NCBI GenBank assembly: GCA_001796355.1
Contig: MGMG01000077.1
Coordinates: 1 to 64,000 of the forward strand
Origin: Chloroflexi bacterium GWB2_54_36
Lineage (GTDB): Bacteria; Chloroflexota; Anaerolineae; Anaerolineales; Anaerolineaceae
Length of the DNA: 64,000 nucleotides
Direction: 5' to 3'
This document shows positions 17,315 to 41,635 of this stretch, one piece after another (within the stretch, counting starts at the first letter, position 1; every line of letters starts with the position of its first letter). A program made the translations under genes and the position numbers. Below the pieces are notes generated by a model. That model ran no database searches. It was not told where the DNA came from and saw only the letters and a program-made list of their open reading frames with translations.

Positions 17315-17995
17315 CTACGCCTTTTCGATCAGTTCAAGCGCGCGCTCGACGACCTGCTCGATCGTTAACCCTTCCGAGTCCAGAATGATTGCATCCTCGG
17401 CTGGCCTTAGCGGGGCAAGCTTTCGACCTGAATCATACGCATCGCGCCAGCGCAGGGAAGCTAGAATCTGGTCATACTCGGCAATTTCTCCGCGAGCAGT
17501 TAACTCATGGTAGCGGCGCCGGGCGCGTTCTTCGACGGTCGCCACCAGATAGATTTTCAACTCGGCTTCGGGGAAAACGACCGTTCCAATATCCCGGCCG
17601 ACCATGACCACCCCGCCGCGCTGCCCAATGCGCCTTTGCAGCCGGGTCATGGCCTGCCGCACACGCGGGTAAGCCGAAACTTGCGAGACGTTGGCGTCCA
17701 CGTCAGAGCTGCGGATATCCCAGGTGATATCTACCCCGTTTATACAAACATCTGCGCTTCTGCCATCCGTTATGGACGGCGGCCTCACATCAATATTCAC
17801 TTCTTCGGAGAGAGCTGAAACCTCGTCTTCCTGATCCACGCGCCCCAGTTTTTGCAGGGCTGCCCAAGTGACGGCGCGGTACAGAATGCCAGTGTCGAAA
17901 AATAAATAGCCGATCCGTTGAGCGAGGCGTTCACCCAGGGTTGATTTTCCCGAGGCAGCCGGCCCGTCGATTGCGATGATACTCGGTTTAACCAT
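17315..17995 (-). CDS. cmk: (d)CMP kinase
   Basis: MVKPSIIAIDGPAASGKSTLGERLAQRIGYLFFDTGILYRAVTWAAL; VGRDIGTVVFPEAELKIYLVATVEERARRR. Start trimmed from 18136 to the ATG at 17995. Confidence 0.96.
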   Translation of the reverse strand: MVKPSIIAIDGPAASGKSTLGERLAQRIGYLFFDTGILYRAVTWAALQKLGRVDQEDEVSALSEEVNIDVRPPSITDGRSADVCINGVDITWDIRSSDVDANVSQVSAYPRVRQAMTRLQRRIGQRGGVVMVGRDIGTVVFPEAELKIYLVATVEERARRRYHELTARGEIAEYDQILASLRWRDAYDSGRKLAPLRPAEDAIILDSEGLTIEQVVERALELIEKA

Positions 17996-18023
17996 ACAAA
18001 TATTCCAATCTAAGAGGTTGATT

Positions 18024-19733
18024 TCAGGGGTTAAACCCTGGCGCATCCGGGAATAAATCAGCGCGCGCCCATAAGACAACAATTGTTTTTTCCACCGGAA
18101 CGGATTTGAAGGCAATCCATTGCAACCACTCATCAATACTCATCTGCCACTTTGGGTTGACTTCCAGAACAAAGTCCTGGCCGCGGTAGGTATCCGCTAA
18201 TTCGGGCGATTGCTTATCAACAGTGATCAACAATGCTGGCGTGGACGTCGATGCAGTAGTGGTTACATATTGCGCCTGCCGGTAATCACGCAATGCCCAG
18301 CGCAGTGCCGGGGAATCAACCCCTTCGACCACCAATTCAAGTTCCCCGGGAACGCGCATTTTCCAGGTCGAGAGGTCATTGAGGGTAGTCTGCAGCAAAT
18401 CCACCTCATCCACCCAGGCCCCACGCCGCCAGATCTGACCCTCGGGGTTGGCTCCTAATCCTGTGCCACCCCAGGCTGCTGAAAAGCCCCACAATCCCAA
18501 CGCCGCGATTAAGCCCCACATTGCCCCCTGCCCGGCGGTTTCCTCGTCCCAGAACCAACGGATCACGAAAGCTGCCCCCACCAGCAGCAACACCGGAAAA
18601 AGCGTACTAACCGTCTTGACTAAGGTCGAGACTTCCGGGCGGTCAGCCTGGAAATAGGCGATAAAGCTGAGCCAGGTAAAGGCTAATAGCACAACCACAA
18701 TTATGCTATACGCAATCGCTGTCCAGCGAAAACTAACCGCTGCCGTCAACAGCTTCGCCAGTTGACGTGCTGCCAACGCCAGCATGGGCAGCAACGCCCA
18801 GCCCAAATCAGCGACCTCGCGCGCCGGGGAAAGCAGCGCCAGCGCTAACGCCGCCAGCCACCAGACCGCTAAAAAGGTGTCCAGCGGGTTTTTCGTCTGG
18901 ATGACGCGTACAAGGCCAACGGCCGCAAACAAGAATCCAAGCGGCTGCGAGAGGACAAGTCCGAGCAGCATCCGGCCGGCTGTGACTGTGCTCGCCTGCG
19001 ACCAACCCGTCAAATATTGAACGATGCCATTGGCTGCGGCATTCAAGCCGTTAGGAATCAGAAAAAGCAGCGTGCCAAATACCAGCACAACGCCTATGAA
19101 CCAGCCAAGCACAACTTTCCAGTCGAATCCGCCAGATACGCCGGCAAATGGGTCCTCAACGGGCTCTTCGACCGGCTGGCGGGGCTGAAAGACGAAGCGG
19201 TAGAGCAGGGACGCAAATCCCAAACCAATGGCTCCCTGCCAGAAAGCTGGCCCACCCAGTAAGGCTAATCCTGCAAATGCACCCAGTAACGCGGTTTTTT
19301 TTGCCAGCAGGGCTGCCAGAGTTAAGAGTACAAACAGCCCTGCCCAGCTCATGCCGTTGGCCTGGCGTGAAACCGCCACCCAACCGGCATCGACCGCCAG
19401 TCCAAAACACAGCAGCAGCGCTGCTTTTTCACCCAGGTGTTTGCGGAACAACCAAGGGGTTAGTGCCAATGCCGTCCCAGCCAGCGCAGGCCAAAAACGC
19501 GCCACGGCTTCACCGGCACCGAATATAAAAAACCAGGCGGTGGTGAGCAGCCCGTAACCGCCTTCGCTGCCAATGAAATGCTCGCCGCCCAAAGCCTGCA
19601 GCGCATTGACCGCTTCGCTGTCAGTCAGCGGCAGCTTGCCCAACAGGATAAATCGTATTAAAAACGCAATTACGCCGGTTAGCAGCAAGGCGATGCGTTG
19701 GTAAGGTAGGTTGCGGTCTATGGATGGGTTCAT
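18024..19733 (-). CDS. GT-C/GT39-like multi-pass membrane glycosyltransferase-family protein
   Basis: IRFILLGKLPLTDSEAVNALQAL followed by repeated TM helices (AALLLCFGLAVDAGWVAVSRQANGMSWAGLFVLLTLAAL). Confidence 0.7.
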   Translation of the reverse strand: MNPSIDRNLPYQRIALLLTGVIAFLIRFILLGKLPLTDSEAVNALQALGGEHFIGSEGGYGLLTTAWFFIFGAGEAVARFWPALAGTALALTPWLFRKHLGEKAALLLCFGLAVDAGWVAVSRQANGMSWAGLFVLLTLAALLAKKTALLGAFAGLALLGGPAFWQGAIGLGFASLLYRFVFQPRQPVEEPVEDPFAGVSGGFDWKVVLGWFIGVVLVFGTLLFLIPNGLNAAANGIVQYLTGWSQASTVTAGRMLLGLVLSQPLGFLFAAVGLVRVIQTKNPLDTFLAVWWLAALALALLSPAREVADLGWALLPMLALAARQLAKLLTAAVSFRWTAIAYSIIVVVLLAFTWLSFIAYFQADRPEVSTLVKTVSTLFPVLLLVGAAFVIRWFWDEETAGQGAMWGLIAALGLWGFSAAWGGTGLGANPEGQIWRRGAWVDEVDLLQTTLNDLSTWKMRVPGELELVVEGVDSPALRWALRDYRQAQYVTTTASTSTPALLITVDKQSPELADTYRGQDFVLEVNPKWQMSIDEWLQWIAFKSVPVEKTIVVLWARADLFPDAPGFNP

Positions 19734-22306
19734 GGCATCCCGTCTTGGGTCAGGATTGGCGAAAGGGGATTATGACCGGGTACTTCGTAAATGGTCACTG
19801 CTGCATTCTGAAAAACGATTTCTAAATTACCTTGAAATTTGGCTTCATTTACCCGGTAGGTGGTGCGTTCAACTGGCCCGATATAGATATATCGAATATT
19901 GTAGCGGTCGATCACCGTAGAAGCTTCATCCCAACTATTGGTGGCATACAGCAATTCCAGATCGCCGCGCCGCGAGCCGATTTCCTCCGCGCCGCCGCGC
20001 CATTGCCACTCATGGCCCTCCCAACCCAGCAAGGCAGGCTGTCCGCTGTGGGTCGAAACCCGCGCTGTGTCGGGGTTGTACGATGCGCCAACCGTCTCAG
20101 CAACGACGCCCAAAGGAGCCGTTTGCAGCCACATGAAAGCTGCCCATTCGTCAGGGTTGTATTGTTGCAGGTAAGCTTTGCCGTCCAGTGTCAGTTCGGA
20201 CAGCGGCTTGGAGGGCAACCCGGTCTTCGCAGCCAGCATGATTACCGGATAAACGAGCGCAGCCGCTGTAACTAACAGCCAGATCACTTTGAACGCTACC
20301 TGCCGTAGGCCGTGTAATTTGCGCCACAGCATAGCGGTCGCGTACGCCGCTGCCAGGCCCCAAAGCATCCAGGCCTGGAAGTAGAACTTGAAAATCGTGT
20401 TCAAGCGCGTGCCAAAGCCATCTTTAAGATAGAAAAACTCCGGCAGCAGAGTCAACCCGGCGCCAACCAGGATCAAAATGGCAACAAAAGCATCCACCGA
20501 ACGCTGCGGGTCAGCCGGAGCGGATGGCGCATCAGGCGCGACTTCCGCCGGCTCAGGTTGGCGTCGTGTGGCAGATAGCAACGCCCAGGCCAGAGCTACT
20601 ACCCCGAGAAGCACCAGCCAGGTAACCAGGTCAGTAACCCGCCGCTGGATCGCCGTCTGAAATAGTTCAACACCCTGCCCGCCTTGCTTGCCAAAGTATT
20701 CGCTCAGACCAAAAACCAGGGATGAACCGAATGGTTGAAGAATGCTGACGCTTTGCTGCCACGAAGTTGCGGCGGACAAGGCTGCCTGGAAAACGCCCCA
20801 GGCTGCAAGCATGAGTACCCACAGCCCACCCACAACGCTGACGCCGGCCAGCAGGCCGTTCTTAATGTCCTGTCGCCGGCTGTGACGGGTCTGGTTTACC
20901 AACCAAAATGCGATAGGCAGCAGCAGCGGCAGGAACATAACCAGGAAATAGGCGCCGCGCGTTTGGAATGCCATCGACGGCAGCAATCCGCCAGCCTGTG
21001 ACGCAAAGCCAAGGTAAAACGGCAGATACAGCACTCCACCTGTAAGCCCCAGCAGCAATCCGATCTTGAAAAAATCGGCCACCCGCGCCCACCCCCATCC
21101 ATTTTGAGAGACGCGCAGCCAGGCGTATACAGCCGCAAACAAAGCAACATAAATCGGAAAATCCCAGGTGTTCAGGAAGGACAGCCCGCCTAAAATAACC
21201 GCGGTGGGCCAGAAATCGAAACGTTTGAACCATTCCTTGATCTGAATCGCCTCAATTTTCTCACCCAACCCGCGGTATGCCAGGTTAAGCGCCAGGCCAA
21301 CCGCCAGCAACACAAACGGCATCCCTAGTACATGCGGATGCAGGTCAGCCAACAGATAGGAAAAGAATGGAAATTCGTTGATAATTTCGGTGGCAGCGCC
21401 GGACAGGTTGAAATCCTGCAGCACGCGCGAACCCATCCACCACAGCCAGCCGCCGCGCTGCGGCAGCCAACTGTAAGGTTGAATTGGCGCAGCGTTGATT
21501 TCTTTAATATTCAACCAGGTCCAAAAGTTCGCCAGCGGTTGACCTTCCATGCCGCTCGACCAGAACAAGCCACGGGCGTGCAGTACATCCAGCAATCCGC
21601 TTAAATTGCTTACCACCAGAATAAAAAGCGGGGCAAGCAGCGCCCAGCCGGTTGCACTCCGGGTGTGCGGGTCTTTGTCACCCTCGCCCGTCCTGGCCAG
21701 CAGGTTATACACAATCCCATAAGCAGCCACCGCAGTCAGCGCAAACCACATAGCTACCGCAAGGTTGAAAGCGACGCTGGTCGCCGTTCCGGTGACCTGT
21801 ACCAGCATCGCGACCATGATGTAACCAAAGTAATAATAGGAAATGGCATACCCGGAGAGCCAGGGATCGATTGGCGGGAAGCCCGGCGAGCGCAAGATGG
21901 CGTTGATGAAGGCCAGTTCCATCGGCTTTTCGGTCCAATTGACTTCAGGATTGGCCGCCCGCACAAACGCCCAGGCAGCAAACGCCAGCGCAAACAGGAC
22001 CTCGGTGGTAATCACCACCCGCTTATGCTGCCTGATCCAATCCCATAGCTCCAGCAAGTTGCCTTTCCCGGCTGCCAGGCTAATTCCAGCCAGCAGGATC
22101 AGCGCCAGCAGCACGCCCCCTGTATTGTTTTGCAACAACCCCAGGTAAGTCAGCAGCCAGAACAGGTAACCCCATCCCAGCAAAGCCAGCGGCCTTGCCA
22201 GCGTGTAACCGCGATCAGGGAGAAAACGGAACAGCCGCTGCGCCAGCGGCAGCGTCAGCCAACCGGCAATCGAGACCAGCAGGTACCACCACAACACATC
22301 GATCAA
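19730..22306 (-). CDS. DUF2298 / Chlor_Arch_YYY membrane protein
   Basis: 858 aa, strongly hydrophobic; EKPMELAFINAILRSPGFPPIDPWLSGYAISYYYFGYIMVAML contains the YYYxG signature. Confidence 0.88.
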   Translation of the reverse strand: MIDVLWWYLLVSIAGWLTLPLAQRLFRFLPDRGYTLARPLALLGWGYLFWLLTYLGLLQNNTGGVLLALILLAGISLAAGKGNLLELWDWIRQHKRVVITTEVLFALAFAAWAFVRAANPEVNWTEKPMELAFINAILRSPGFPPIDPWLSGYAISYYYFGYIMVAMLVQVTGTATSVAFNLAVAMWFALTAVAAYGIVYNLLARTGEGDKDPHTRSATGWALLAPLFILVVSNLSGLLDVLHARGLFWSSGMEGQPLANFWTWLNIKEINAAPIQPYSWLPQRGGWLWWMGSRVLQDFNLSGAATEIINEFPFFSYLLADLHPHVLGMPFVLLAVGLALNLAYRGLGEKIEAIQIKEWFKRFDFWPTAVILGGLSFLNTWDFPIYVALFAAVYAWLRVSQNGWGWARVADFFKIGLLLGLTGGVLYLPFYLGFASQAGGLLPSMAFQTRGAYFLVMFLPLLLPIAFWLVNQTRHSRRQDIKNGLLAGVSVVGGLWVLMLAAWGVFQAALSAATSWQQSVSILQPFGSSLVFGLSEYFGKQGGQGVELFQTAIQRRVTDLVTWLVLLGVVALAWALLSATRRQPEPAEVAPDAPSAPADPQRSVDAFVAILILVGAGLTLLPEFFYLKDGFGTRLNTIFKFYFQAWMLWGLAAAYATAMLWRKLHGLRQVAFKVIWLLVTAAALVYPVIMLAAKTGLPSKPLSELTLDGKAYLQQYNPDEWAAFMWLQTAPLGVVAETVGASYNPDTARVSTHSGQPALLGWEGHEWQWRGGAEEIGSRRGDLELLYATNSWDEASTVIDRYNIRYIYIGPVERTTYRVNEAKFQGNLEIVFQNAAVTIYEVPGHNPLSPILTQDGMP

Positions 22307-22680
22307 AGTTCATCCTCGTTTTTTGGCAATCCTGCCGGCCAGACAAAACTGCCATCGCTTTCGGGCGCAAAAACCAACACCGCCGTCACTGCATCCAGGT
22401 TGAGTTGGCCGTACAGGTGCGGGAATTCCTGTCCATCTTCGATTGGCTCGTAGCGCAACTCAGCAGCCAGTAGATTCGGGTCGATCAACAGCAGTACGAC
22501 ATTACGGTTGCCATGATAGAACTTGTTGGCGGTGCGCAGCAGCTGGCGCCCCGTTGAAAAATGGATGAAACCTTCGGTTTCGAGTGAGCCGGTGGCGTAT
22601 GCGCCATTTTCCAGCGCTTTTGACCATTCATGTGCCGGGGCGATATGAAATATGCGCTTGGGACGCTCTGCATCACTCAT
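22303..22680 (-). CDS. DUF952 family protein
   Basis: RIFHIAPAHEWSKALENGAYATGSLETEGFIHFSTGRQLLRTANKFYHGNRNVVLLLIDPNLLAAELRYEP...FPHLYGQLNLDAV is DUF952. Confidence 0.92.
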   Translation of the reverse strand: MSDAERPKRIFHIAPAHEWSKALENGAYATGSLETEGFIHFSTGRQLLRTANKFYHGNRNVVLLLIDPNLLAAELRYEPIEDGQEFPHLYGQLNLDAVTAVLVFAPESDGSFVWPAGLPKNEDEL

Positions 22681-25600
22681 GGAATCACCTCGTAGATGGC
22701 GGTCGAACCATCCAAATAAACCTGCTGCCAGTATTGACCGGCATAAGTGGGGAATTTGGCAATGCCAAAGGGGTCGTAGGTCACTTGCTCCAACTGACCA
22801 ACGATGATGTATTTAACATTGTACTTCTGCAGGAATTGAACCGCCTGCTCGGGGTCAGTCGTGTTGTAGAAATTGGCCACTTCGTCGATGCGCGCCCAGA
22901 TGGAGGTATCCGGAATCGTCGCCCGCTGCTGCCGCTGGTGCCAGTTCCAGCCAATGGTGGCGGGCAGGCCGGTGTAAATCGAGATGCGCGAACCCCAGCG
23001 GTACTCGACGGTATTGGCTTCTACGATCACCGGCGAGCCCTGAACGTTTTCCTGCAGCCAGCGGATGGCTTTGTAGTCTGCGTTCAGGTCCAGCAAACCA
23101 TTCTGGTCATGGTACTGTGAGGTCTGCATGTAGGCCATGCCGTCCAAAGTATGGGGAGCTGAATCACTGATCCGGTCGCGCATTTTAGACGGAGCGGCGG
23201 TTAATGGGTAGAAAAATGCGAATACGACAAACAAACCGACAACAGCAATCCAGGCGTTGCGCCACCCCGGTTTCCAGCGGAGTTCGATTTGCGGCAGCAG
23301 CCAGAACAATCCGGCAGCCGCGCTGAGTGAGAACAGGGTCCAGGCTTGCAAATAAAATTTGAAGACCGTGTTCATGCGGTTGATGTCGCCAACCAGCACA
23401 ATAATTTCCACTGCCAGCGTCAGCACTGCAGCCGTCCCAAGCATGAACAGCACCGCCCGTTTTGGGTCGGGTTGACCGGGACGCAGCAAAAGCAGCAGCG
23501 CCCAAACCGCCAGCGATAACGCCAGCCAGGTAACCGCTACTTTTTGCTGGTAGGTAAGGAACAAGACCACAACGATAAACAGTGCTGTTCCCCCTAAAAT
23601 CACGGTTTTATAGGGGCGCAGCTTATTCAAAGATGACAGCGGAGTCTTTTCCATCCAATCGACGGTTTCCCAAAACAACCAGGTGACTAGGATTACCAGG
23701 AATAACCCCCAGTGGGTAAAGTAATCGTAAAAGGTGGTCTTTGCGCCTTGCCACAAATCAATCTTGGTGTAACCCTGCGCGTACCAGGCCTGATACGGCT
23801 GGTACAGCGCAAAGGCCAGCCCGGCCAGCAGAATCACTGCCTCAACCGCCACAATTAACCGCCGGATAACCTGCGGCAACCGCGGCAGAAACTTTTCGGG
23901 GGGTACAGCGTGACGGATAGCACTGTAAAGAATAGCCGCAATTGCCAGGCCGAGATAGGTGGGCATATCCCAGGTGTTGGCCGGGTACAAAGCGCCAATG
24001 GTCAGTCCGCCAAGGAACATGGACAAACCAAAGGGCAGCCATCCGCTCGCGTGCGAACCAATCTTCCAATTCCATTTACCCAGTACGATGGATAAGGCCC
24101 AGCCCAACGCCAGCAGCGTAATTGGCAAAGCGAACAGATGAGCATGTGGATCGCCGTAAAGGAAGGTAAAGAACGGGAACTCGGTAATCGCATCGCCGCC
24201 CTTGACTGCCCGGCTGGGAATCCAGTACCAGTCCGCCGGAGAGTAAGGCAGTACTACCCCTTTGAAATATTCTGCCAGGCCGCGGAAGGTCCATCCCACC
24301 TGTGTAATCAGGTTGGCGTCCTCGATGGTGCCGCCAGGCGCGACCAACTTCATGATGCCTTCCCACATCATGCGAATCGTGCCGAGGTTGCCAAGGATCA
24401 GCGTTGCCACCGCAGAAGATACACCGGCAATCCATGGTGCAATTCCGGGGCGTTCATCATCGTCGCCGTTCGCCTGATGGGATTTAAACCACTGCTGTAC
24501 ATTCGAGCCGAAACTGTAAGCCCCCAGCGCGATCAGCGAAAAGAAAGTCGGCAGAATCAAGTTGTAGGCAATCGACGGAACGACGCCAAGCCATTTGGTG
24601 GGGACTGCGGCGACAACAAAACCGTAGTAATAGTAATTGATCCATCCGCCAGCGTACCACGGGTTGTAAGGCGGGAATGTTGTGCTTTTCAAAACGGCAT
24701 TGAAGTACGCGAAATCCATCGGCTTTTCGCCGCCGTAATTCGGATGCCAGAGATCGGGGTTGCCCAGTCGGATGAACAGGAAGAGCAGGAAAAAAGCCAA
24801 CCCGACCGCTTCGACCGTCAGAAAAGATCGCCAACGAAGTTTAATTTCGCGGCCCAATTCGTTGCGCTGCCAGATCGCCAGCGCCAGGCTTGCCCCGCCT
24901 AACAAACCTACCGCGCCCCAAATCGTCCAGCGGGTGAACGGGATGTTGTTTGCTCCTGCCATCCATACCAGCCAGGTGAGCACCAGTAAACTTGCAGTTT
25001 TTGCCAGCGGGTAGCCGTAATCCGGCAATCCTTTCATGGCTATGCGCAAAATTGGATAGATCAACCAGCCCAACAGCAGGATCACCAGATACCAGACCGC
25101 TGCCCCAATCCCAGGGTAGCGGTTGATCAGCGCATCGACATCGAACAACTCTGACCAGGTGCCGCCGTTTTGCTGGATCGCCAGGCGATCATCAGGCAGG
25201 AGTAAGTCCGCTGGATAATCCGGCGCCTGCCCGGGTATGACATGGATCACATTGCTCAGGTCGACTGCTTCTAGTATTCGGTTAACCTCTGCCTGCGAAT
25301 AATTTGCAGTTTTTTTGAAAATGAGTACCTTGGGATGGTCGTATACCGTGAAGGCTTCTTCCGCGAATTGGTCGTTTATTTGAATCGATCCAAGCGTTGG
25401 ATACGATTGGAAGACCTGAACCAGTTCGAAGCCCAACCGCCCGCTATAAGTCCCAACCTGAGCGGTGCGGTAGCAATCAATCAGGTCTTCTTCCGCCGGG
25501 CAGCCCAGCAGTTCGCGGTAATAAACGGTGGTCAGGGGGTAGCGCTCAGGTACGCGCGTGGTCGTGCCCCATTGGCGGTTGGAGGTAATGGTAATGGCAT

Positions 25601-27959
25601 CGGCGCGTTCGAGAACGGCCTCAAAGCGGGCCAACTTATCCAGGCTGTCATCCCAGTACATCTCGAAGTTGAGGTCACCCTCATACAACCCAGCAAAAGG
25701 GTCGTATCCATCGATGCGCAGAGGGACGCTGTCATCCCAGGGGGTTTCCACTGCGATGCCAGAACCATAAACTGCCAGCTCAGCATCGCGATTCACTACT
25801 TCCATGCGCAGCAGATAGAGCGCGCCAGCCGTCACCTGAATTGAATGGTCTAATTGCCAGCGGTACTCTCGCCCGCGCGGATCTTCGTCGGCGGCAAAGT
25901 CGCTGACGATTTCAGTTTGCGCCAGCGGAGCGGCCAGATTGCCTTCTTCCGAGATGCTAATCCGCAGGGTACTCAGCCCCGGCTCGCCGGTTGTGGCCAC
26001 CACCCGATTGAGCACGACCTGGCTTAACTGGCCGCTGGTCGACGGCACGAAGCGGATGTCGCCCGGTTGCAATGTCCGAATGGTGTCTATCATCGGCGGC
26101 AGTTCCAGCCTTGTGACGCCGTCCAGCGTCTGGATGGTTGCGCCGGTTGCTCCCGATAAGCCGAGCGCAACTTCAGATTCTTGCACATGGAGATCGATCC
26201 GATATCTTTGCCCTGCTTGAACCGCCACGGGCTGTTCCAGCGGAACGCTCCAGCCCAAAAGCTGCCCTCCGCCTTGGAAAGTGTTGGCGAGGATTCCAAA
26301 ACCCGCCGCCCGCGCTTCTGATCCCACCTCATAAAGAGTGATTCCCAAAGTCTTCGGGTTTGGGTCCGACGATAAATCCTGGATGTTGGTGAATTGGAAG
26401 GCGGTCAGCAGTCCGGAAGTATCGGAAGTGAAACCTATTGAAATCGTTTCAGCGGAGGAGAGAATCTGCATTGGGGCGTACGGCAACTGCTGCCGTACCC
26501 GGCCATCGTCAGTGTCAATTTCCAGGTTGACCGGCCCTGAGACATTCTGGAACACCCAGCGAGAGGCTTCCACCCGAGTCATCGGTTGGGTGTAAATGCG
26601 GGTGAAAGCGAAGGCCCAGGCAAAGGTGGCTGCCAGGGTGAGGAAGCCGGTTGTCACAGCAGCAATCTTCAACCAGCGCCCGGCCTGCAATTTGCCGGCA
26701 TCCATTTTCTTCCGACCAATCTCCCAGAGGTTCCACAGCGCCCAACCGGCAGTCAATGCCAGGGTCGGGTAAATCGGCAGTTCGTAGCGCATGGTCGGGT
26801 TGCCCTGCTGCGACTGCCAGATAAAATAGATGGCTGTCCAGCCCCACACCAGCAGGCTGCGCTTCCAGGTTCCATTGAGTTGGCGAACGCCCATCCAGAT
26901 GAACCCGGCCCAGGCCAAAATTCCCATGGGCAGTCCCATACCCCACAACACCATATTGGTGAAGGAGAAGGTTACCGGGCGGCGCGCCCATTGCAGCGCC
27001 GGCGGGAAATCGACATTCCCGGTCATCTGGTTCGAGAGTTCTTTCAGGTTGGCAATCCACTTTTCATTGGGCACAATCCCAAAGAAACCCGGCCCGCTGA
27101 AAGCATACGGCTGCAAAACACGAAATATCAGGAAGGTTGCCGCGCCGCCGACTACCAGGTCGCGAAATGTAATTTGCCACAGCTCAATCCGTTGGTCGCG
27201 GGGATGGCGCATGATCAAAATAAACCAGGCTGCCGGCAATAATACCGCCATCAAAGCGGTGTTGATTTTACAGGCCATCGCGCTGCCAATCGCAACGCCA
27301 AACCACAGGCTGTTGCGTACGGATTCACTCTGGTACCATTTTTGACCGGCACGGACGCTCGGTTCAAGGATTGGCTGTGTGGCTAAGCGAGCCGCGAAGT
27401 ACAATGCCAGGGTAGTGAAAGTCGTCGAGAATGAATCGGCGGTGTAAAAATGCGACTGCTGGATTTGCATGACAGCAAAGGCCGAAAATGCCGCGCCAAG
27501 CACGCCAATTTTGCGGTTGAACAACCGTGCGCCCAATAAATAAACCAGCAGCACGGTCACCAGATCCATCAAAGCCGAAAAAACTCGGCCGGTCTGCAGG
27601 ATTTGCTCCCAGAATACCGTTCCAAATATCGCATCAGCCAGATAACGGGTGGCGATGAGCGGGAAAGTGCCGTAAACGAAAAATGTATCGCCAACATTAT
27701 GCGGATTGAGCGTCGATTTGGCCGTATCGAAGTAGTCGCCCAGGCTATCCACTGCAGAAATATGCGAGGTCACTCCGACAAAAAAGCGTTCATCAGGATG
27801 CAAAAAACTGTATTCGCCCCAAAACAGGCCGGTAAAGCGGAAATAAGCCGCTGCGGCCATGATGATAAATAACAGAATAATCCATAACCGCGAATCCCAT
27901 GACTTTCTGGGAATAGTCTTGATGGTTTCCATTACGGAGGGCATGGTCGGTTCGGTCAT
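22677..27959 (-). CDS. GT39-like domain fused to a DUF2298/Chlor_Arch_YYY domain (1760 aa)
   Basis: N-terminal half: YFRFTGLFWGEYSFLHPDERFFVGVTSHI and GT-C-type TM helices. C-terminal half (about 22677-25130): EKPMDFAYFNAVLKSTTFPPYNPWYAGGWINYYYYGFVVA, homologous to the 19730-22306 product. Confidence 0.88.
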   Translation of the reverse strand: MTEPTMPSVMETIKTIPRKSWDSRLWIILLFIIMAAAAYFRFTGLFWGEYSFLHPDERFFVGVTSHISAVDSLGDYFDTAKSTLNPHNVGDTFFVYGTFPLIATRYLADAIFGTVFWEQILQTGRVFSALMDLVTVLLVYLLGARLFNRKIGVLGAAFSAFAVMQIQQSHFYTADSFSTTFTTLALYFAARLATQPILEPSVRAGQKWYQSESVRNSLWFGVAIGSAMACKINTALMAVLLPAAWFILIMRHPRDQRIELWQITFRDLVVGGAATFLIFRVLQPYAFSGPGFFGIVPNEKWIANLKELSNQMTGNVDFPPALQWARRPVTFSFTNMVLWGMGLPMGILAWAGFIWMGVRQLNGTWKRSLLVWGWTAIYFIWQSQQGNPTMRYELPIYPTLALTAGWALWNLWEIGRKKMDAGKLQAGRWLKIAAVTTGFLTLAATFAWAFAFTRIYTQPMTRVEASRWVFQNVSGPVNLEIDTDDGRVRQQLPYAPMQILSSAETISIGFTSDTSGLLTAFQFTNIQDLSSDPNPKTLGITLYEVGSEARAAGFGILANTFQGGGQLLGWSVPLEQPVAVQAGQRYRIDLHVQESEVALGLSGATGATIQTLDGVTRLELPPMIDTIRTLQPGDIRFVPSTSGQLSQVVLNRVVATTGEPGLSTLRISISEEGNLAAPLAQTEIVSDFAADEDPRGREYRWQLDHSIQVTAGALYLLRMEVVNRDAELAVYGSGIAVETPWDDSVPLRIDGYDPFAGLYEGDLNFEMYWDDSLDKLARFEAVLERADAITITSNRQWGTTTRVPERYPLTTVYYRELLGCPAEEDLIDCYRTAQVGTYSGRLGFELVQVFQSYPTLGSIQINDQFAEEAFTVYDHPKVLIFKKTANYSQAEVNRILEAVDLSNVIHVIPGQAPDYPADLLLPDDRLAIQQNGGTWSELFDVDALINRYPGIGAAVWYLVILLLGWLIYPILRIAMKGLPDYGYPLAKTASLLVLTWLVWMAGANNIPFTRWTIWGAVGLLGGASLALAIWQRNELGREIKLRWRSFLTVEAVGLAFFLLFLFIRLGNPDLWHPNYGGEKPMDFAYFNAVLKSTTFPPYNPWYAGGWINYYYYGFVVAAVPTKWLGVVPSIAYNLILPTFFSLIALGAYSFGSNVQQWFKSHQANGDDDERPGIAPWIAGVSSAVATLILGNLGTIRMMWEGIMKLVAPGGTIEDANLITQVGWTFRGLAEYFKGVVLPYSPADWYWIPSRAVKGGDAITEFPFFTFLYGDPHAHLFALPITLLALGWALSIVLGKWNWKIGSHASGWLPFGLSMFLGGLTIGALYPANTWDMPTYLGLAIAAILYSAIRHAVPPEKFLPRLPQVIRRLIVAVEAVILLAGLAFALYQPYQAWYAQGYTKIDLWQGAKTTFYDYFTHWGLFLVILVTWLFWETVDWMEKTPLSSLNKLRPYKTVILGGTALFIVVVLFLTYQQKVAVTWLALSLAVWALLLLLRPGQPDPKRAVLFMLGTAAVLTLAVEIIVLVGDINRMNTVFKFYLQAWTLFSLSAAAGLFWLLPQIELRWKPGWRNAWIAVVGLFVVFAFFYPLTAAPSKMRDRISDSAPHTLDGMAYMQTSQYHDQNGLLDLNADYKAIRWLQENVQGSPVIVEANTVEYRWGSRISIYTGLPATIGWNWHQRQQRATIPDTSIWARIDEVANFYNTTDPEQAVQFLQKYNVKYIIVGQLEQVTYDPFGIAKFPTYAGQYWQQVYLDGSTAIYEVIP

Positions 27960-28044
27960 GATTGGGTCACGTTATTTTATAAATGAAAAATGGGCGATAG
28001 CATTAATTGTATGCAAGTTTTGCCGCAAGTGAATATGGGTTTTA

Positions 28045-29220
28045 TTAACTCCTGGCGGCTTTCATTTCATCCTTGATCTCAAGGAACAGGCGCTCATAAT
28101 TTTCAGCAATCGTATCGGGCAGGTATTGCAGCTGTATAGATTGTGGTTCGCGGATGAACGCCTGGCGGTTGCCCAGGATCTCAAGCAGGCATCCCGCCAG
28201 CGCTGCTGCATCGCCAGCCGGAAAAATTTTCCCCATGCCGTGCATCTTGACCGGCTGACGCACGCCCGGGATATCCGAAGCGACCGCCGGCACCCCTTTG
28301 GTCATTGCCTCGATCTGGACGATGCCAAACGATTCAGTCGAGTTCAGCGAAGGCAAGGCCAGTACATCAAGATTGGAGAAAAAGGCCGGCATATCGGCAT
28401 CCGGAATAAATCCGAGAAATTTCCAATTGCCAGCTTTTTCATATTCTTGAATGCGCGGATAGAGCCGGGCGAAATAAGCTTCTTCGCCCACGACATTCTT
28501 GTATGCTCCGACAAACTGCACCTGTGCCCGGGGATATTCCTTCAATACCGCTGGCAGCGCATCCAGCAGCACCTCGACGCCTTTCTCGGTGGCAAACCGC
28601 GAGGCCAATCCGATGACCGGACGGCGACCATCGGGATTGTACTTTTGTGCAAAGCCATGCGCTGCGTCCGGTGTCACCGGCGGTAATTCGATGGGCGGTG
28701 GAATCACTTTCAATTTACCAAGGTAGCGTTTCAGAAATGGCGAATGCTCGGCATAATCGCGGGTGTTGGTGACGATTCGGTGGGCAAATCGGGCCGCCAG
28801 TTCATTCATTAGCAAAATACCCTGGTTGGCCGCCCAGCTGAGCAAACCCGGCGGCATTAATAAGTCGCAATGATAAGTAATGATAGTCGGTTTTTCCCAG
28901 ATGCGGCCGCGGAAAGCCACCCCGGCAGCATCGAACTGCGGCAGGTGCAACTGGATGACGTCGTTCTCACGCACCAAATCAGTAGCCATCCGCCCAAAAC
29001 GCGGCATGACGACCCCCTTGCTGACCCGGAACGCGACCGGTACCCGTACAACGCGCACACCCTCGATCATCTCGTCCAAGGGGAGGTCGTTGGTGTATTG
29101 CGAGGTCATCACCGTCACCTGATGCCCGCGCCGCGCCAGCGCCTTCGCCAACCGTTCGGCGTAGATGGTCAGCCCGGATGCGTGGGGACGGTAGTAGGTC
29201 AAAACAGATAGGATGCGCAT
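28045..29220 (-). CDS. Glycosyltransferase family 4
   Basis: MRILSVLTYYRPHASGLTIYAERLAKALARRGHQVTVMTSQ; PVIGLASRFATEKGVEVLLDALP; LALPSLNSTESFGIVQIEAMTKGVPAVASDIPGVRQPV. Confidence 0.95.
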   Translation of the reverse strand: MRILSVLTYYRPHASGLTIYAERLAKALARRGHQVTVMTSQYTNDLPLDEMIEGVRVVRVPVAFRVSKGVVMPRFGRMATDLVRENDVIQLHLPQFDAAGVAFRGRIWEKPTIITYHCDLLMPPGLLSWAANQGILLMNELAARFAHRIVTNTRDYAEHSPFLKRYLGKLKVIPPPIELPPVTPDAAHGFAQKYNPDGRRPVIGLASRFATEKGVEVLLDALPAVLKEYPRAQVQFVGAYKNVVGEEAYFARLYPRIQEYEKAGNWKFLGFIPDADMPAFFSNLDVLALPSLNSTESFGIVQIEAMTKGVPAVASDIPGVRQPVKMHGMGKIFPAGDAAALAGCLLEILGNRQAFIREPQSIQLQYLPDTIAENYERLFLEIKDEMKAARS

Positions 29221-29254
29221 ATCGTTTTATCGACTGCCGGATGACAGCTTAAGT

Positions 29255-30265
29255 TCAGGCAGCACTCTTTCGGTTTTGCAGGTCGAGAAACAGGCTGCTG
29301 ATAGAGCGCCCCTGGCGCACCAATCCAAACAAACCGAGTGCGCCGGTTACTAAAATTTGCATGAAATGCAGCGTGATGGCATAAGCCAGCCCCGTAGTCT
29401 GGTCGATGCCAAGTATCGTAAGCGCCCCGACCGTCGCAGCCTCAAAGGTCCCTAGCGCTGCCGGCGCGGACGGGATTGCGATCCCGAGGGCCAGTACTGC
29501 GTCTGTGAACACACCCCACCATATCGGCACCGTTGGAGCGATCGCCAGCAGCCCGACATAATAAACCCCTATGGCAATTGCCCAGGAGGCCAACAACAAC
29601 AGCAGCGCCAGGATAAATTGACGGAGGTCGGTTAGCGCAGTCAATCCGGTCAAAAGCGAGCGCACTTGCGGCGCCACCCATTTACCCACGAATTTCCAGC
29701 GTATGCCTAGCTTATCTACCCAGGCGCTCACTTTCAGGTGATGGCGGGCCATCAAAAATAGGCTCGCCATACCGGCAGCCACTACGGCCAGCATGATGAT
29801 TGCCACCGGCTTTGCCCAGGTCATTTCGAGCGCCAGCGGCAGGGTGGAGAGCAGCATGGTGGCGGCAATGGCAATATCCAGCGCGCGCTCGATGATGATG
29901 CTGCTAAGGATTTGTGCGGCTGGCAGATTGGTCTGCTGGCCAAGCAGCACCGCCCGCCCGATTTCGCCCAAACGGAACGGCAGAATATTGTTGAGCAGGT
30001 AACCCTGGTTGATCGCCCAGAAAGCCTCGCTGAGTTTAGGACGTCCGGAAAGCAGCACCCTGGATACCCCGGCTCGAATCAACAGGAAGACAAGGGTCAG
30101 GAGAACCATAACCCCTATATACCCCAGCGAAAAACGGCGCAAGGCTGGGCCAAGCTCCTGCCACTGGGTCACCCGGGCGACAAAGAAGAAGGCTACCAGG
30201 CTAATGAACACACCGGGCAGCCAACGCCGCGATTTCTTCCATACAGTCGCGATCGCTGAGGTCAA
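29255..30265 (-). CDS. Lysylphosphatidylglycerol synthase TM region / flippase-like (UPF0104, AglD-like) membrane protein
   Basis: [45 protein letters not shown] and [22 protein letters not shown] are LPG_synthase_TM hallmarks. Confidence 0.88.
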
Positions 30266-32064: not shown

Positions 32065-32492
32065 TCCGCGGATAGTATAACCGATAATTCCCAGCCGTTG
32101 ACGGCTGATTATGCGCCGGCGGATTGACATGGCCGTGGTGATGTTTGGGGCAGCACTGGGTCGGGTCTGAAAGTATAAATCCCGTGCAAATTAAGCAATG
32201 GTTTATTGTGATTTTGCAACCAACTGTGGTAGGACCCACTCCTCCATTATCCTGTTTGGCGTAAGGGTGGGTCTGCTGCCAAGAATAAAACACCTGCGGA
32301 CCAATTGGCCTGCCGGAAGTGATAGACCATCAGCGACCAGACCCGCCCTGTGTTGGCTGTGAAGGAGTCCAGGTTAACTGTAGGGGCCCTAGAATTTTCT
32401 CAACGCCTCAGAACAGAAGATTACCCCGGTGTCCGATCAAAACCTGGGCACGGGATTAATGAAATGGTTGAAAAACTTTAATCATCCCTGTA

Positions 32493-37139: not shown

Positions 37140-37209
37140 AGGCAGATTGTACCCGGTTTGCGCCTGTCGAAGCGCATCTGCCAGACATTACTTATGATAT
37201 GATTACCGC

Positions 37210-38079
37210 ATGCTTCGCGCCCTCATCAAATCCATGCGTCTGCGGCAGTGGTCTAAGAATGTGTTTGTGCTGGCTGCCGTAGTATTCGACCGCCAGTTAG
37301 GCCACCTGCCGGCAGTTCTGGCATCTCTGGCTGGCTTCGTTCTGTTCTGCCTTTTATCCAGCAGCGTATATTTGATCAATGACGTGTTGGATGTCAAAGC
37401 TGACCGCCAGCATCCGGAAAAACGCAACCGTCCGATCGCATCGGGCGCGCTGCCGATCCGAGTCGCGCTCGGCGCTGCATTTATCCTGGTAATGATCACC
37501 ATTCCGGCAGCATTCCTGTTATCCACAAACTTCGGCTGGGTGGCGCTGACCTATTTTCTGCTCAATCTGGCCTATTCCAACTGGCTGAAGCACATCCCGT
37601 TGCTGGATGTGATGATCATCGCAGCCGGATTTGTCCTTCGGGTGGCGGGCGGCGTGGTCTTGATTATCGTCGAGCGTTTTTCCCCCTGGTTATATGTCGT
37701 CACCACCCTTGGCGCGCTTTATATCGGATTTGGCAAGCGCCGCTCCGAACTGGCTCTTCTGGAAAACGAAGCCAACAGCCACCGCCGGGTGTTTGACGGG
37801 TACACCATTCCGCTGCTCGACCAGTTGATCCTGATCGTTTCCAGCACCACCATCATTGCGTACAGTTTGTACACCTTTTCGGCGCCCAACCTTCCGGCTA
37901 ACCACAGCATGATGTTGACGATCCCTTTTGTACTTTACGGCGTCTTCCGATACCTGTATCTGATTCAGGTCAAGCAAGCGGGTGGCGCCCCCGAGGAACT
38001 GTTGATCTCAGATCGACCGTTGCAGGCAACCATTGTCCTGTGGGGAATAGCCATCCTGATCATTTTCTACCTTTTTTAA
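37210..38079 (+). CDS. UbiA-family prenyltransferase, decaprenyl-phosphate phosphoribosyltransferase-like
   Basis: MRLRQWSKNVFVLAAVVF...YLINDVLDVKADRQHPEKRNRPIASGALP; several TM helices. Confidence 0.88.
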   Translation: MLRALIKSMRLRQWSKNVFVLAAVVFDRQLGHLPAVLASLAGFVLFCLLSSSVYLINDVLDVKADRQHPEKRNRPIASGALPIRVALGAAFILVMITIPAAFLLSTNFGWVALTYFLLNLAYSNWLKHIPLLDVMIIAAGFVLRVAGGVVLIIVERFSPWLYVVTTLGALYIGFGKRRSELALLENEANSHRRVFDGYTIPLLDQLILIVSSTTIIAYSLYTFSAPNLPANHSMMLTIPFVLYGVFRYLYLIQVKQAGGAPEELLISDRPLQATIVLWGIAILIIFYLF

Positions 38080-38086
38080 GTCAAAA

Positions 38087-39049
38087 ATGCCAGCGATCTC
38101 TGCAACTGCTCCCGGGAAATTGATTTTATTCGGCGAACATGCGGTCGTCTATAACCATCCGGCGATCGCCATCCCCTTCAATGGTGTGCACGCAAAGGCC
38201 ACAGTATTCGCCACGCCCATTGCCCCGACCGGCCGCGTGCGCATTGAAGCCCAGGCCATTGGGTTGGATCAAACCCTGGACCAACTGGCTGCCGACCATC
38301 CATTTGCCATTGCCATTCATGGGGTAATGAAAACACTGGGTATCCACTGGCTGCCCGCCTGCCACATCCGCATTACTTCGAGCATTCCTATCGCGGCCGG
38401 AATGGGCTCGAGCGCTGCAGTATCCATTGCCCTTTCCCGCGCACTGGCGACTTTTTTAGGTCACCCGTTGGAGGATTCGGCTGTCAATGTGATCGCTTTC
38501 CAGGTCGAACAGCAATCGCACGGCACGCCGTCCGGGGTGGATAACACGGTTATCAGCTTTGGTCGCCCGGTTTATTTTGTCCGCAACCAGCCCATTGAGT
38601 TTTTAATGATACGCGAACCGCTTGATTTATTGGTAGCCGATAGCGGCATAGCGGCTGCTACCGGTCCGATGGTGGCTGGCGTTTTGCAGCGCTTTCAGGC
38701 AGACCCTGAAACCTACGGAACTTATTTCGATCAAATCGCCAACCTGGTAAAACAGGCCCGCACGGATCTCGAAAGCAGCGCTGGAGTTCATCTCGGTCCG
38801 TTGATGACCGAAAATCACAGCCTGCTGCAAAAAATCGGGGTTTCGACGCCGGAACTGGACCGGCTGGTCGAAGCGGCTTTGGATGCTGGTGCTTTGGGCG
38901 CCAAATTGACCGGCGGCGGAGGCGGCGGCAACATCATCGCCCTGGTCGCCAACAACCAGATTGAAAAAGCCACCCAGGCTTTGTTGGCGGCCGGTGCGCA
39001 CCGGACCTGGCTGCTTAACTTACCGCGCTATAAGGAACCGGCCTCGTGA
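38087..39049 (+). CDS. mvk: Mevalonate kinase
   Basis: ATAPGKLILFGEHAVVYNHPAIAIPF; ITSSIPIAAGMGSSAAVSIALSRAL; LTGGGGGGNIIAL (GHMP motifs). Confidence 0.94.
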   Translation: MPAISATAPGKLILFGEHAVVYNHPAIAIPFNGVHAKATVFATPIAPTGRVRIEAQAIGLDQTLDQLAADHPFAIAIHGVMKTLGIHWLPACHIRITSSIPIAAGMGSSAAVSIALSRALATFLGHPLEDSAVNVIAFQVEQQSHGTPSGVDNTVISFGRPVYFVRNQPIEFLMIREPLDLLVADSGIAAATGPMVAGVLQRFQADPETYGTYFDQIANLVKQARTDLESSAGVHLGPLMTENHSLLQKIGVSTPELDRLVEAALDAGALGAKLTGGGGGGNIIALVANNQIEKATQALLAAGAHRTWLLNLPRYKEPAS

Positions 39050-39840
39050 TCACGTTCCTCAAATTGGGCGGCTCGCTCATTACCGACAAATCCACGCCGC
39101 GTAAGGCGGACATGGACGTTATCCGCCGTTTAGCGGCTGAAATCCGAACAGCTCAGAAGGAACTGCCACAGTTGAGGTTGTTGCTTGGGCACGGGTCTGG
39201 CTCTTTTGGGCACGTTCCCGCCCGTGAATACAACACGCGCAATGGAGTTCGAACTGTTTCCGAGTGGAACGGGTTTCTGGAAGTCTGGCGGCAGGCTCGC
39301 GACCTCAATCAGATCATGATCGAAGCTCTTACTCAGGCTGGCATTCCCATTATGGCCTTTCCACCCTCGGCTATCATCCAGGCTGCCGACGGCCAACCGG
39401 TTAGTGTCCAGTCCGAGCCGCTGCTTTCTGCCCTTAATTCAGGGCTGACGCCGCTGGTTGCCGGGGATGTTATTTTTGATAAAGTGCGCGGCGGTACCAT
39501 TTTTTCCACCGAAGACGTCTTCATGGCGCTCACAGCAACCAATCCTCCCGACCGAGTGCTGGTATGCGGCAAAGAAAGCGGCGTCTGGGAAGACTACCCG
39601 GCCAATACCCGCTTGATCCCCAAAATAACCTCTTCCAGCTACGAACAGTTGCAAAAATCGCTTGGCAACTCGGCTGGGATTGATGTCACAGGCGGAATGC
39701 GCACTAAAGTGGAACAAATGCTTAACCTGATAAAACGATACCCGAAAACCAGAGCAGTCATATTCTCAGGCAGCCAGCCAGGCGTTTTGTATGACGTGCT
39801 GGTCGGCCGCCCCCATGGAACGGTTATTGCGAATATTTAA
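39046..39840 (+). CDS. Isopentenyl phosphate kinase
   Basis: ITFLKLGGSLITDKSTPRKADMDVIRRLAAEI..LLLGHGSGSFGHVPAREYNT; amino-acid-kinase fold with the IPK-type GSFGH motif; 4-bp GTGA overlap with mvk. Confidence 0.92.
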   Translation: MITFLKLGGSLITDKSTPRKADMDVIRRLAAEIRTAQKELPQLRLLLGHGSGSFGHVPAREYNTRNGVRTVSEWNGFLEVWRQARDLNQIMIEALTQAGIPIMAFPPSAIIQAADGQPVSVQSEPLLSALNSGLTPLVAGDVIFDKVRGGTIFSTEDVFMALTATNPPDRVLVCGKESGVWEDYPANTRLIPKITSSSYEQLQKSLGNSAGIDVTGGMRTKVEQMLNLIKRYPKTRAVIFSGSQPGVLYDVLVGRPHGTVIANI

Positions 39841-39852
39841 GGAGATTGAAAT

Positions 39853-41004
39853 ATGATTTTCTCCCGCGAACAACTCGAAGCAATCGAAGATAAATATCTG
39901 GCGCCGTATGGCTCGCACAGTAAATACTCCCGCGGGCGCTTGCACCAGGAGGATGAACCGCCGTACCGGACGATATATCAACGTGACCGGGACCGCATCT
40001 TACACACCACTGCATTCCGCCGGTTGGAATACAAAACCCAGGTATTTATAAATTATGAAGGCGATTATTACCGCACCCGCCTGACCCATACCCTGGAAGT
40101 CGCCCAAATTGGCCGGACCCTGGCGCGCGTGTTGGGCGCCAGCGAAGACCTGACCGAGACCATCTGTCTGGCTCACGATCTGGGGCACCCGCCATTTGGG
40201 CATTCCGGTGAGACCGCGTTAGCCGGCCTGATGAAAGAATATGGCGGATTCGAGCACAACAAACAATCCTTCCGCATTGTCACCGAACTCGAACGGCGCT
40301 ATCCTGACTTCCCCGGTTTAAACCTGAGTTGGGAGGTTCTGGAGGGCATTGTCAAGCATGAGACGGAGTATGACCGGGCCGACGCCCGCGACTTCAACCC
40401 CGATTTGCGCGGCCATATGGAAGCCCAGATCGCTAATGTGGCGGATGAACTGGCTTACACGGCGCACGATCTGGATGATGGGCTGCGCTCCAGCATGATT
40501 AACGAAGAGATGTTGGAGAGCATCGAGCTCTGGCAGGTCATGCGCGAGAGCATCGGTTGGCGAACTGGCAACCTGGATGACCTTACCCGGCATCGTATCA
40601 TCCGGCGCTTGATTGGCAGCGAGGTGGATGATCTGGTTGAAACCACCGAGCAGCGCCTGCGCGAAAGCAACCCATCGTCTGTTGAGGATTTGCAACGGCT
40701 GCCTTACAATGTGGTTACTTTCTCGGAAAAGATGCACCGCCGTAACCGTCAATTGAAGGACTTCCTCTACAATCGGTTGTACCGTCACTACCGCGTAGTG
40801 CGCATGGCCGTCAAAGCAGAGAATCTCATTGCGCAACTCTTTAAGGCCTACCGGAAAGAGCCCACGGTGCTGCCAGGGCATGTCCAGCCGCGGATAAAGG
40901 AAATCGGCCTGGAACGCACCATTTGCGACTACATCGCTGGCATGACCGACCGCTATGCAATCGAAGAATCAAAAAAATTGTTCGACCCGGCCACCCTGCC
41001 CTAA
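39853..41004 (+). CDS. dgt: dGTP triphosphohydrolase-like HD protein
   Basis: TIYQRDRDRILHTTAFRRLEYKTQVFINYEGDYYRTRLTHTLEVAQIGRTLAR..ICLAHDLGHPPFGHSGETAL. Confidence 0.95.
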   Translation: MIFSREQLEAIEDKYLAPYGSHSKYSRGRLHQEDEPPYRTIYQRDRDRILHTTAFRRLEYKTQVFINYEGDYYRTRLTHTLEVAQIGRTLARVLGASEDLTETICLAHDLGHPPFGHSGETALAGLMKEYGGFEHNKQSFRIVTELERRYPDFPGLNLSWEVLEGIVKHETEYDRADARDFNPDLRGHMEAQIANVADELAYTAHDLDDGLRSSMINEEMLESIELWQVMRESIGWRTGNLDDLTRHRIIRRLIGSEVDDLVETTEQRLRESNPSSVEDLQRLPYNVVTFSEKMHRRNRQLKDFLYNRLYRHYRVVRMAVKAENLIAQLFKAYRKEPTVLPGHVQPRIKEIGLERTICDYIAGMTDRYAIEESKKLFDPATLP

Positions 41005-41167
41005 CGCTGATCGGATTGCATCCATCCCCAATATTGAACGTTTGATGATATCATTGGGGCTGTTCTTAGATCCAATAAGAACCAACTTATCTGTTTACCC
41101 CAATCGGGTATATCAGGAGTGATTGCAATGCGTTTGACTTATTATTACTTCGGAGTTGGCATTAATA

Positions 41168-41635
41168 ATGGCTGATGTTTCTTATCTAACCCTTGATGGC
41201 TTGAACCGTTTGAAAAATGAACTGGCCAAAATGACAGGCCCTGAGCGCGAGGAAATCGCAAAGCGGTTGCGGGCTGCGATTGACCAGGGCGACCTTTCTG
41301 AGAATGCCGATTACACCTCGGCCAAGGAAGATCAGTCGTTCCTGGAAGGCCGCATCCAGGAAGCCGAACGCCTTCTCTCGAACGTGGTCATTATTGATAA
41401 CGTCACAAAAAATCTGGAAGAAGTGGGTATTGGTGACCACATCACCATCCAGGAAGGTACTTACCCGGTTGAAAAATACCACCTGGTGGGCCCTAAAGAA
41501 GCTGACCCCGGAAACGGGCGGATTTCACTGGAATCCCCCATCGGCAAAGCCCTGTTGGGACGAAAAGTCGGGGAAGAAGTCTTGGCTGACACGCCAGGCG
41601 GCAGTATCCGCTTTACAATCCTAAAGATCGAATAA
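41168..41635 (+). CDS. greA: Transcription elongation factor GreA
   Basis: YLTLDGLNRLKNELAKMTGPEREEIAKRLRAAIDQGDLSENADYTSAKEDQSFLEGRIQEAERLL. Confidence 0.97.
   Translation: MADVSYLTLDGLNRLKNELAKMTGPEREEIAKRLRAAIDQGDLSENADYTSAKEDQSFLEGRIQEAERLLSNVVIIDNVTKNLEEVGIGDHITIQEGTYPVEKYHLVGPKEADPGNGRISLESPIGKALLGRKVGEEVLADTPGGSIRFTILKIE

What the first reader, a model, noticed from the sequence alone, without database searches (positions are those of the whole stretch)
37210..39840. DPPR-synthase-like UbiA, mevalonate kinase and isopentenyl phosphate kinase in a row: alternative mevalonate route feeding a polyprenyl-phosphate pentose donor
Seen: three plus-strand genes, mvk and ipk sharing a GTGA overlap; ubiA ends 7 nt before mvk. 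Established: IPK belongs to the alternative mevalonate pathway (mevalonate-5-phosphate decarboxylase then IPK), known in archaea and reported for the Chloroflexi genus Roseiflexus; DPPR synthase makes polyprenyl-phosphoryl-pentose precursors used by GT-C arabinosyltransferases in mycobacteria. Inference: isoprenoid supply and a lipid-linked pentose donor are genetically linked here, and the GT-C/YYY proteins could be the users.
Basis: partly seen in the sequence, partly recalled or inferred. Interest (0 to 1): 0.65.

Follow-up and report, generated by a model that had tools for sequence, protein, structure and literature searches.

The report
Isoprenoid genes wired to pentose-lipid synthase
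A Chloroflexota bacterium (order Anaerolineales) keeps two enzymes of an archaea-like isoprenoid pathway in one probable operon with an enzyme predicted to load ribose-phosphate onto an isoprenoid lipid, and this pairing is conserved across its order, which suggests that making the lipid carrier and charging it with a sugar are run as one unit.

Summary
The isoprenoid half is supported but already known in kind: the genome has thiolase, HMG-CoA synthase and HMG-CoA reductase in a row, and a decarboxylase closest to the solved Anaerolinea thermophila phosphomevalonate decarboxylase; no phosphomevalonate kinase passes its cut-off and IspG is absent. UbiA is a phosphoribosyltransferase-family protein: nine PRPP-site residues of Rv3806c are invariant in 32 homologues, and its predicted fold matches 8j8j best. 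The link is the new part: UbiA-MVK is adjacent in 39 of 39 relatives that have UbiA and in 72 of 80 database loci, and UbiA-IPK is adjacent in 7 of 7 members of a second family. I found no paper describing it. One inference is corrected: the arabinose-epimerase domain (DprE1, PF04030) is missing, so polyprenyl-phosphate-ribose is the likelier donor. The GT-C/YYY 'users' remain unproven: they sit in a conserved but divergent neighbouring block, missing near UbiA in 5 of 20 relatives. No enzyme activity was measured.

The parts
37210..38079 (+). ubiA-like polyprenyl-phosphate 5-phosphoribosyltransferase (DPPR synthase / PPPRS family), 289 aa, no fused HAD phosphatase
   Evidence: NF008977 263.4 bits over cut-off 234; only solved relatives found by sequence are Rv3806c 8j8j/8j8k; PRPP-site residues invariant in 32 homologues; AlphaFold model closest to 8j8j, TM 0.83
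38087..39049 (+). mevalonate kinase (mvk), 320 aa
   Evidence: TIGR00549 254.2 bits over cut-off 163; best PDB hits are mevalonate kinases
39046..39840 (+). isopentenyl phosphate kinase (ipk), 264 aa, GTG start overlapping the mvk stop
   Evidence: NF040647 160.3 bits over cut-off 120; aligns to M. jannaschii IPK 3k4o; K6 G8 G9 K15 H56 G140 D213 T215 G216 invariant in 33 homologues
39853..41004 (+). dGTPase-like gene 12 nt after ipk, probable end part of the same transcription unit
   Evidence: NF002326 488 bits over cut-off 390; follows the cluster in 25 of 80 loci
37140..37209 (.). 70-nt divergent intergenic region between tlyA (minus) and ubiA (plus), presumed promoter region of the operon
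   Evidence: Sequence; tlyA divergent just upstream in 57 of 80 loci; no consensus sigma-70 promoter found there
18024..30265 (-). Neighbouring minus-strand block: GT-C-like 569 aa, two Chlor_Arch_YYY/DUF2298 proteins, GT4 glycosyltransferase, LPG_synthase_TM protein; possible but unproven users of the lipid-linked sugar
   Evidence: Pfam and NCBIfam; block kept upstream of UbiA in 15 of 20 relatives

Best explanation
This is the UbiA-MVK-IPK operon of an Anaerolineales bacterium. MVK and IPK are the first and last kinases of the alternative (haloarchaea-type) mevalonate route: acetyl-CoA to HMG-CoA to mevalonate, mevalonate-5-phosphate (MVK), isopentenyl phosphate (PMD, on another contig), isopentenyl diphosphate (IPK). 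UbiA transfers phosphoribose from PRPP to a polyprenyl phosphate made from that isoprenoid. After loss of the 5-phosphate by a separate phosphatase, polyprenyl-phosphate-ribofuranose would be flipped outward and used by a GT-C enzyme to put ribofuranose on an envelope glycan. Co-transcription would keep the polyprenyl-phosphate pool in step with its loading. Shown by sequence: gene identities, gene order, its conservation and the make-up of the pathway. Inferred: activities, co-transcription, ribose as the final sugar, phosphatase, flippase, acceptor, and the regulatory reason.
For: Gene identities over curated cut-offs. PMD homologue in the own genome, closest to A. thermophila PMD 6n0x at E 3e-130 (PMC9254496), keeping N22, R28, H196 and catalytic D282. 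HMGR, archaeal-type HMGS and thiolase in a row. No IspG in 21 genomes while 9 controls ring. No PMK over cut-off; the own-genome hits are this MVK. All 29 IPK-bearing genomes of the phylum sample carry UbiA, against 50 of 92 without IPK. UbiA-MVK adjacency in 39/39 relatives and 72/80 loci, mostly under 30 nt apart. UbiA-IPK adjacency 7/7 in family f28, a separate clade of the UbiA tree. PRPP-site residues equivalent to Rv3806c R22 K28 Y70 N73 D77 K87 R90 Y138 K143 are invariant (PMC10994848), as are those needed in C. youngae ORF15 (PMC11127046).
Against: No activity measured. Rv3806c Q135 (ribose contact) is N here and not conserved. UbiA is also found in many Chloroflexota without MVK or IPK, so it is not part of the mevalonate pathway itself. 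The 5-phosphatase, flippase and acceptor glycan were not identified. Two of the MPD-type residues listed for R. castenholzii (Leu77, Ala201) are N and S here.
Confidence: 0.72

Rival explanations
1. One reading: the lipid-linked donor is arabinose (a DPA-like pathway as in mycobacteria), used by the GT-C/YYY proteins.
For: UbiA family is that of DPPR synthase; GT-C-like proteins lie 7-19 kb upstream and the block is conserved in 15 of 20 relatives.
Against: PF04030 (DprE1 C-terminal domain) gives no match in the own genome and none over cut-off in 21 genomes, while the C. glutamicum control rings. In the surveyed systems Araf goes with DprE1/E2 homologues (PMC11127046).
Confidence: 0.1
2. UbiA is an ordinary prenyltransferase (for quinone, archaeal-type lipid or another acceptor) placed beside mvk/ipk because it uses their product.
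For: UbiA superfamily fold; the prenyltransferase AfUbiA is the next best structural match.
Against: Quinone and lipid UbiA models score about 18-50 bits against 263 for the phosphoribosyltransferase model; phmmer finds only Rv3806c in the PDB; the HPxK motif region with K71 and R74 (Rv3806c K87, R90) is invariant.
Confidence: 0.07
3. The linkage is a frozen ancestral gene order without functional meaning.
For: Neighbouring housekeeping genes (tlyA, lepA, dgt, greA, topA) are also kept in order in many relatives.
Against: UbiA-MVK stays adjacent where IPK has moved away (G011, G029, G031, G035), and a second clade links UbiA to IPK instead.
Confidence: 0.15

Closest known systems
Alternative (haloarchaea-type) mevalonate pathway of Roseiflexus castenholzii and Anaerolinea thermophila (PMC3857490, PMC9254496)
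   Same: MVK, a DMD-like PMD and IPK without PMK; the window genome's PMD is a close homologue of the solved A. thermophila enzyme.
   Different: PMD is on another contig than mvk-ipk; mvk and ipk stand in a row with a phosphoribosyltransferase gene, which these papers do not describe in the passages read.
Mycobacterial DPPR synthase Rv3806c and the DPA pathway (PMC10994848)
   Same: Same enzyme family, PRPP-site residues and fold (TM 0.83 to 8j8j).
   Different: No DprE1 domain detected, so no known route to arabinose; linked to mevalonate genes rather than to arabinan genes.
Three-component pentofuranose system of Citrobacter youngae O1/O2 (PMC11127046)
   Same: UbiA-type polyprenyl phosphoribose synthase as entry to a lipid-linked pentofuranose donor; no arabinose epimerase needed for Ribf.
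   Different: No fused HAD phosphatase; no MATE flippase or GT136 enzyme identified in the operon.

Membership tests
Alternative (haloarchaea-type) mevalonate pathway | IPK with the catalytic histidine and conserved residues | tested here: met
   NF040647 over cut-off; H56, aligned to the FGH motif of M. jannaschii IPK, and K6 G8 G9 K15 G140 D213 T215 G216 invariant (list from PMC3857490)
Alternative (haloarchaea-type) mevalonate pathway | DMD-like decarboxylase with PMD-type specificity residues | tested here: met
   Own-genome hit G000:C90; closest to 6n0x, the A. thermophila PMD; N22 and H196 are the two positions where the 6n0z chain differs (K and M); R28 as in Chloroflexi MPD. The Leu77 and Ala201 equivalents are N and S, so the R. 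castenholzii pattern is met only in part
Alternative (haloarchaea-type) mevalonate pathway | No phosphomevalonate kinase | tested here: met
   TIGR01220: 0 of 21 genomes over cut-off; the own-genome hits are the window MVK. Weakness: no control genome, L. lactis included, passes this model's cut-off in the six-frame search
Alternative (haloarchaea-type) mevalonate pathway | Upper mevalonate pathway present, MEP pathway absent | tested here: met
   HMGR, HMGS and thiolase in a row; IspG 0 of 21 genomes, 9 controls positive
Alternative (haloarchaea-type) mevalonate pathway | Enzyme activities | not testable with these tools
   Needs biochemistry
Archaeal (anhydromevalonate phosphate) mevalonate pathway | Mevalonate-5-phosphate dehydratase (AcnX, PF04412) | tested here: not met
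   Own genome only 25.2 bits, below cut-off 31.5, over part of a 429-aa frame
Polyprenyl-phosphate phosphoribosyltransferase (DPPR synthase / PPPRS) | Family profile over curated cut-off | tested here: met
   NF008977 and NF008978
Polyprenyl-phosphate phosphoribosyltransferase (DPPR synthase / PPPRS) | PRPP and Mg binding residues and UbiA-PRTase fold | tested here: met
   R10 K16 Y54 N57 D61 K71 R74 Y122 K127 invariant; the Q135 equivalent is N; 8j8j is the best fold match
Polyprenyl-phosphate phosphoribosyltransferase (DPPR synthase / PPPRS) | Transfer of phosphoribose from PRPP to polyprenyl phosphate | not testable with these tools
   Needs biochemistry
Mycobacterial DPA (arabinose) pathway | DprE1/DprE2 epimerase | tested here: not met
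   PF04030: no match in own genome, none over cut-off in 21 genomes. DprE2 not tested
Three-component pentofuranose system | 5-phosphatase (fused HAD PRP domain or separate) | tested here: inconclusive
   Fused domain absent: 289 aa, one UbiA domain. A separate phosphatase was not sought
Three-component pentofuranose system | Flippase and GT-C transferase | tested here: inconclusive
   GT-C-like genes in a neighbouring divergent block; GtrA next to UbiA in one other Chloroflexota genome; GT136 membership not tested

The most novel reading that the evidence does not exclude
Across Anaerolineales, and by a separate event in a second Chloroflexota family, charging of polyprenyl phosphate with ribose is hard-wired to isoprenoid supply: UbiA-made lipid-linked ribofuranose is a major sink for the isoprenoid pool, and these bacteria carry an undescribed ribofuranosylated envelope glycan.
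Probability: 0.4. Interest if true: 0.65.

Novelty: new variant of a known kind. Interest (0 to 1): 0.5.

Why it matters
Both enzyme families are known, but their stable genetic union is not described in the papers searched. It gives a testable clue to the chemistry of the poorly known Chloroflexota envelope and points to where the isoprenoid supply goes. In Corynebacterium the size of the polyprenyl phosphate pool and its loading by UbiA are tied together physiologically (PMC3937683, abstract), so an operon that joins supply and loading makes functional sense.

Tried and rejected
Arabinose donor: rejected as the first choice, because the DprE1 domain is missing. Archaeal AcnX route: not met in the own genome. 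Classical mevalonate pathway: no PMK over cut-off. Ordinary prenyltransferase: much lower scores. UbiA neighbours in 20 Chloroflexota genomes outside the family gave no single recurring partner: GtrA in one, LPG_synthase_TM plus GT2 in family f33, GT-C-like genes within 4 kb in f28 and next to it in one other. Literature searches for a UbiA/mevalonate link in Chloroflexi and for pentose in Chloroflexus or Anaerolineae envelopes gave nothing direct. Promoter and terminator scans gave no more than chance. The whole genome was not available as a file, so it was examined by searches and stretches only.

Full report
OBSERVATION. ubiA 37210-38079, mvk 38087-39049 and ipk 39046-39840 run on the plus strand; 7 nt separate ubiA and mvk, and the ipk GTG overlaps the mvk TGA as GTGA. 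A dGTPase-like gene starts 12 nt after ipk, and a tlyA-like gene is divergent 70 nt upstream. All three pass curated NCBIfam cut-offs, and the nearest solved structures by sequence are Rv3806c, mevalonate kinases and archaeal IPKs.

THE MEVALONATE HALF. The genome (G000, 2.89 Mb, 94.5% complete) has a DMD-family decarboxylase at C90:1116-2009. Its best solved relative is 6n0x at E 3e-130, far ahead of any classical DMD; 6n0x is the phosphomevalonate decarboxylase of Anaerolinea thermophila (PMC9254496). In the alignment the 6n0z chain differs from 6n0x at the two positions that are N22 and H196 in the window genome's enzyme (K and M in 6n0z); that these were mutated to change specificity is my reading, from the sequences and from memory. 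R28 matches the Arg of Chloroflexi MPD in PMC3857490, while the Leu77 and Ala201 equivalents do not match. HMG-CoA reductase (TIGR00532), archaeal-type HMG-CoA synthase (TIGR00748) and a thiolase-like gene stand in a row on C92. IspG is absent from all 21 genomes searched, while nine controls ring. No PMK passes its cut-off and the hits in the own genome are the window MVK. The archaeal AcnX dehydratase is below cut-off here. IPK matches in 41 of 41 genomes of the relatives search, 39 over the cut-off. So this is the haloarchaea-type route already known from Chloroflexi.

THE UbiA HALF. Phosphoribosyltransferase models score 263 and 239 bits; quinone and lipid prenyltransferase models score at most about 50. 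Gao et al. (PMC10994848) list the PRPP, Mg and pyrophosphate contacts of Rv3806c. Through the alignment, R22, K28, Y70, N73, D77, K87, R90, Y138 and K143 correspond to R10, K16, Y54, N57, D61, K71, R74, Y122 and K127, all invariant in 32 homologues of the order. Q135 is N here and varies. The residues tested in C. youngae ORF15 (N, D, D, D in loop II; R and E in loop IV; PMC11127046) correspond to N57, D58, D61, D65, R177 and E180, all invariant. An AlphaFold model (pLDDT 87) matches 8j8j best (E 6e-13, TM 0.83), well ahead of UbiA prenyltransferases. The protein has no fused HAD phosphatase.

THE LINK. In the relatives search UbiA is found in 39 of 41 genomes, usually one copy. Adjacency was read, and MVK follows UbiA on the same strand in all 39 (in one of them UbiA is split between two contig ends). 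In an independent database, 72 of 80 loci have MVK directly after UbiA, most gaps under 30 nt, and IPK directly after MVK in 30. In G011, G029, G031 and G035 IPK has moved away but UbiA-MVK has stayed. In a sample of 121 genomes from the phylum, UbiA is in 79, MVK over cut-off in 28 and IPK in 29; all 29 IPK genomes have UbiA against 50 of 92 others (Fisher p 7e-7, not corrected for kinship). Outside the order UbiA and MVK are not adjacent in that sample, but in all 7 sampled members of family f28 UbiA and IPK are adjacent on the same strand. In the UbiA tree the two f28 sequences tested form a fully supported clade apart from the MVK-linked clade, which suggests two linkage events.

WHICH SUGAR, AND WHO USES IT. 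PF04030 (DprE1) is absent in the own genome and never over cut-off in 21. In the surveyed three-component systems arabinofuranose goes with DprE1/E2, xylofuranose with an SDR epimerase, and ribofuranose with neither (PMC11127046). Ribofuranose is therefore the simplest prediction; xylofuranose remains possible. The GT-C/YYY genes of the window belong to a minus-strand block (TlyA, LepA, LPG_synthase_TM, GT4, YYY, YYY, GT-C, cmk) kept next to UbiA in 15 of 20 relatives, with an added SDR epimerase and PMT_2-type protein, and in one a methyltransferase, in the two relatives read in full. In the other five relatives the block is not within the roughly 20 kb upstream of UbiA while UbiA-MVK is still there. 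So this is a plausible glycan neighbourhood, but not a demonstrated user.

MECHANISM AND CERTAINTY. Shown by sequence: identities, order, conservation, pathway make-up, missing alternatives. Inferred: activities, ribose, the missing phosphatase and flippase, the acceptor, and the reason for linkage. A reason with precedent is balance of the polyprenyl phosphate pool: in Corynebacterium, absence of decaprenyl phosphoribose synthesis and a raised decaprenyl phosphate pool change the response to a block of decaprenyl phosphate recycling (PMC3937683, abstract).

VERDICT. The pathway part is known; the conserved UbiA-mevalonate linkage appears undescribed in the library searched, which lacks most subscription journals.

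Noticed in passing
window 17315-32130, minus strand; L199-L217: A block TlyA-LepA-LPG_synthase_TM-GT4-YYY-YYY-GT-C-cmk is conserved next to UbiA in 15 of 20 relatives; two relatives read in full also hold an SDR epimerase, a PMT_2-type GT-C and in one a methyltransferase that the window lacks.
   Followed up: partly
window 39853-41635: A dGTPase-like gene and greA follow ipk, and do so in 25 and 23 of 80 loci; why a dGTPase travels with isoprenoid genes is unexplained.
   Followed up: no
L196-L198 and G008, G009, G026: Six of 21 relatives carry AcnX (PF04412) over cut-off, most of them together with a PMD homologue; possible second mevalonate route or an unrelated dehydratase.
   Followed up: no
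L008 (G016 PMD): The PMD homologue of G016 has L and M at the N and H specificity positions, so its substrate may differ.
   Followed up: no
L176, 5946-7367: In a distant Chloroflexota genome UbiA is followed directly by a GtrA-type flippase gene, a lead for the missing flippase.
   Followed up: no
L190 and L191: In f28 genomes UbiA-IPK is followed by a SpoIIM-family gene, with a PMT_2/TMEM260-like GT-C gene close by on the other strand.
   Followed up: no
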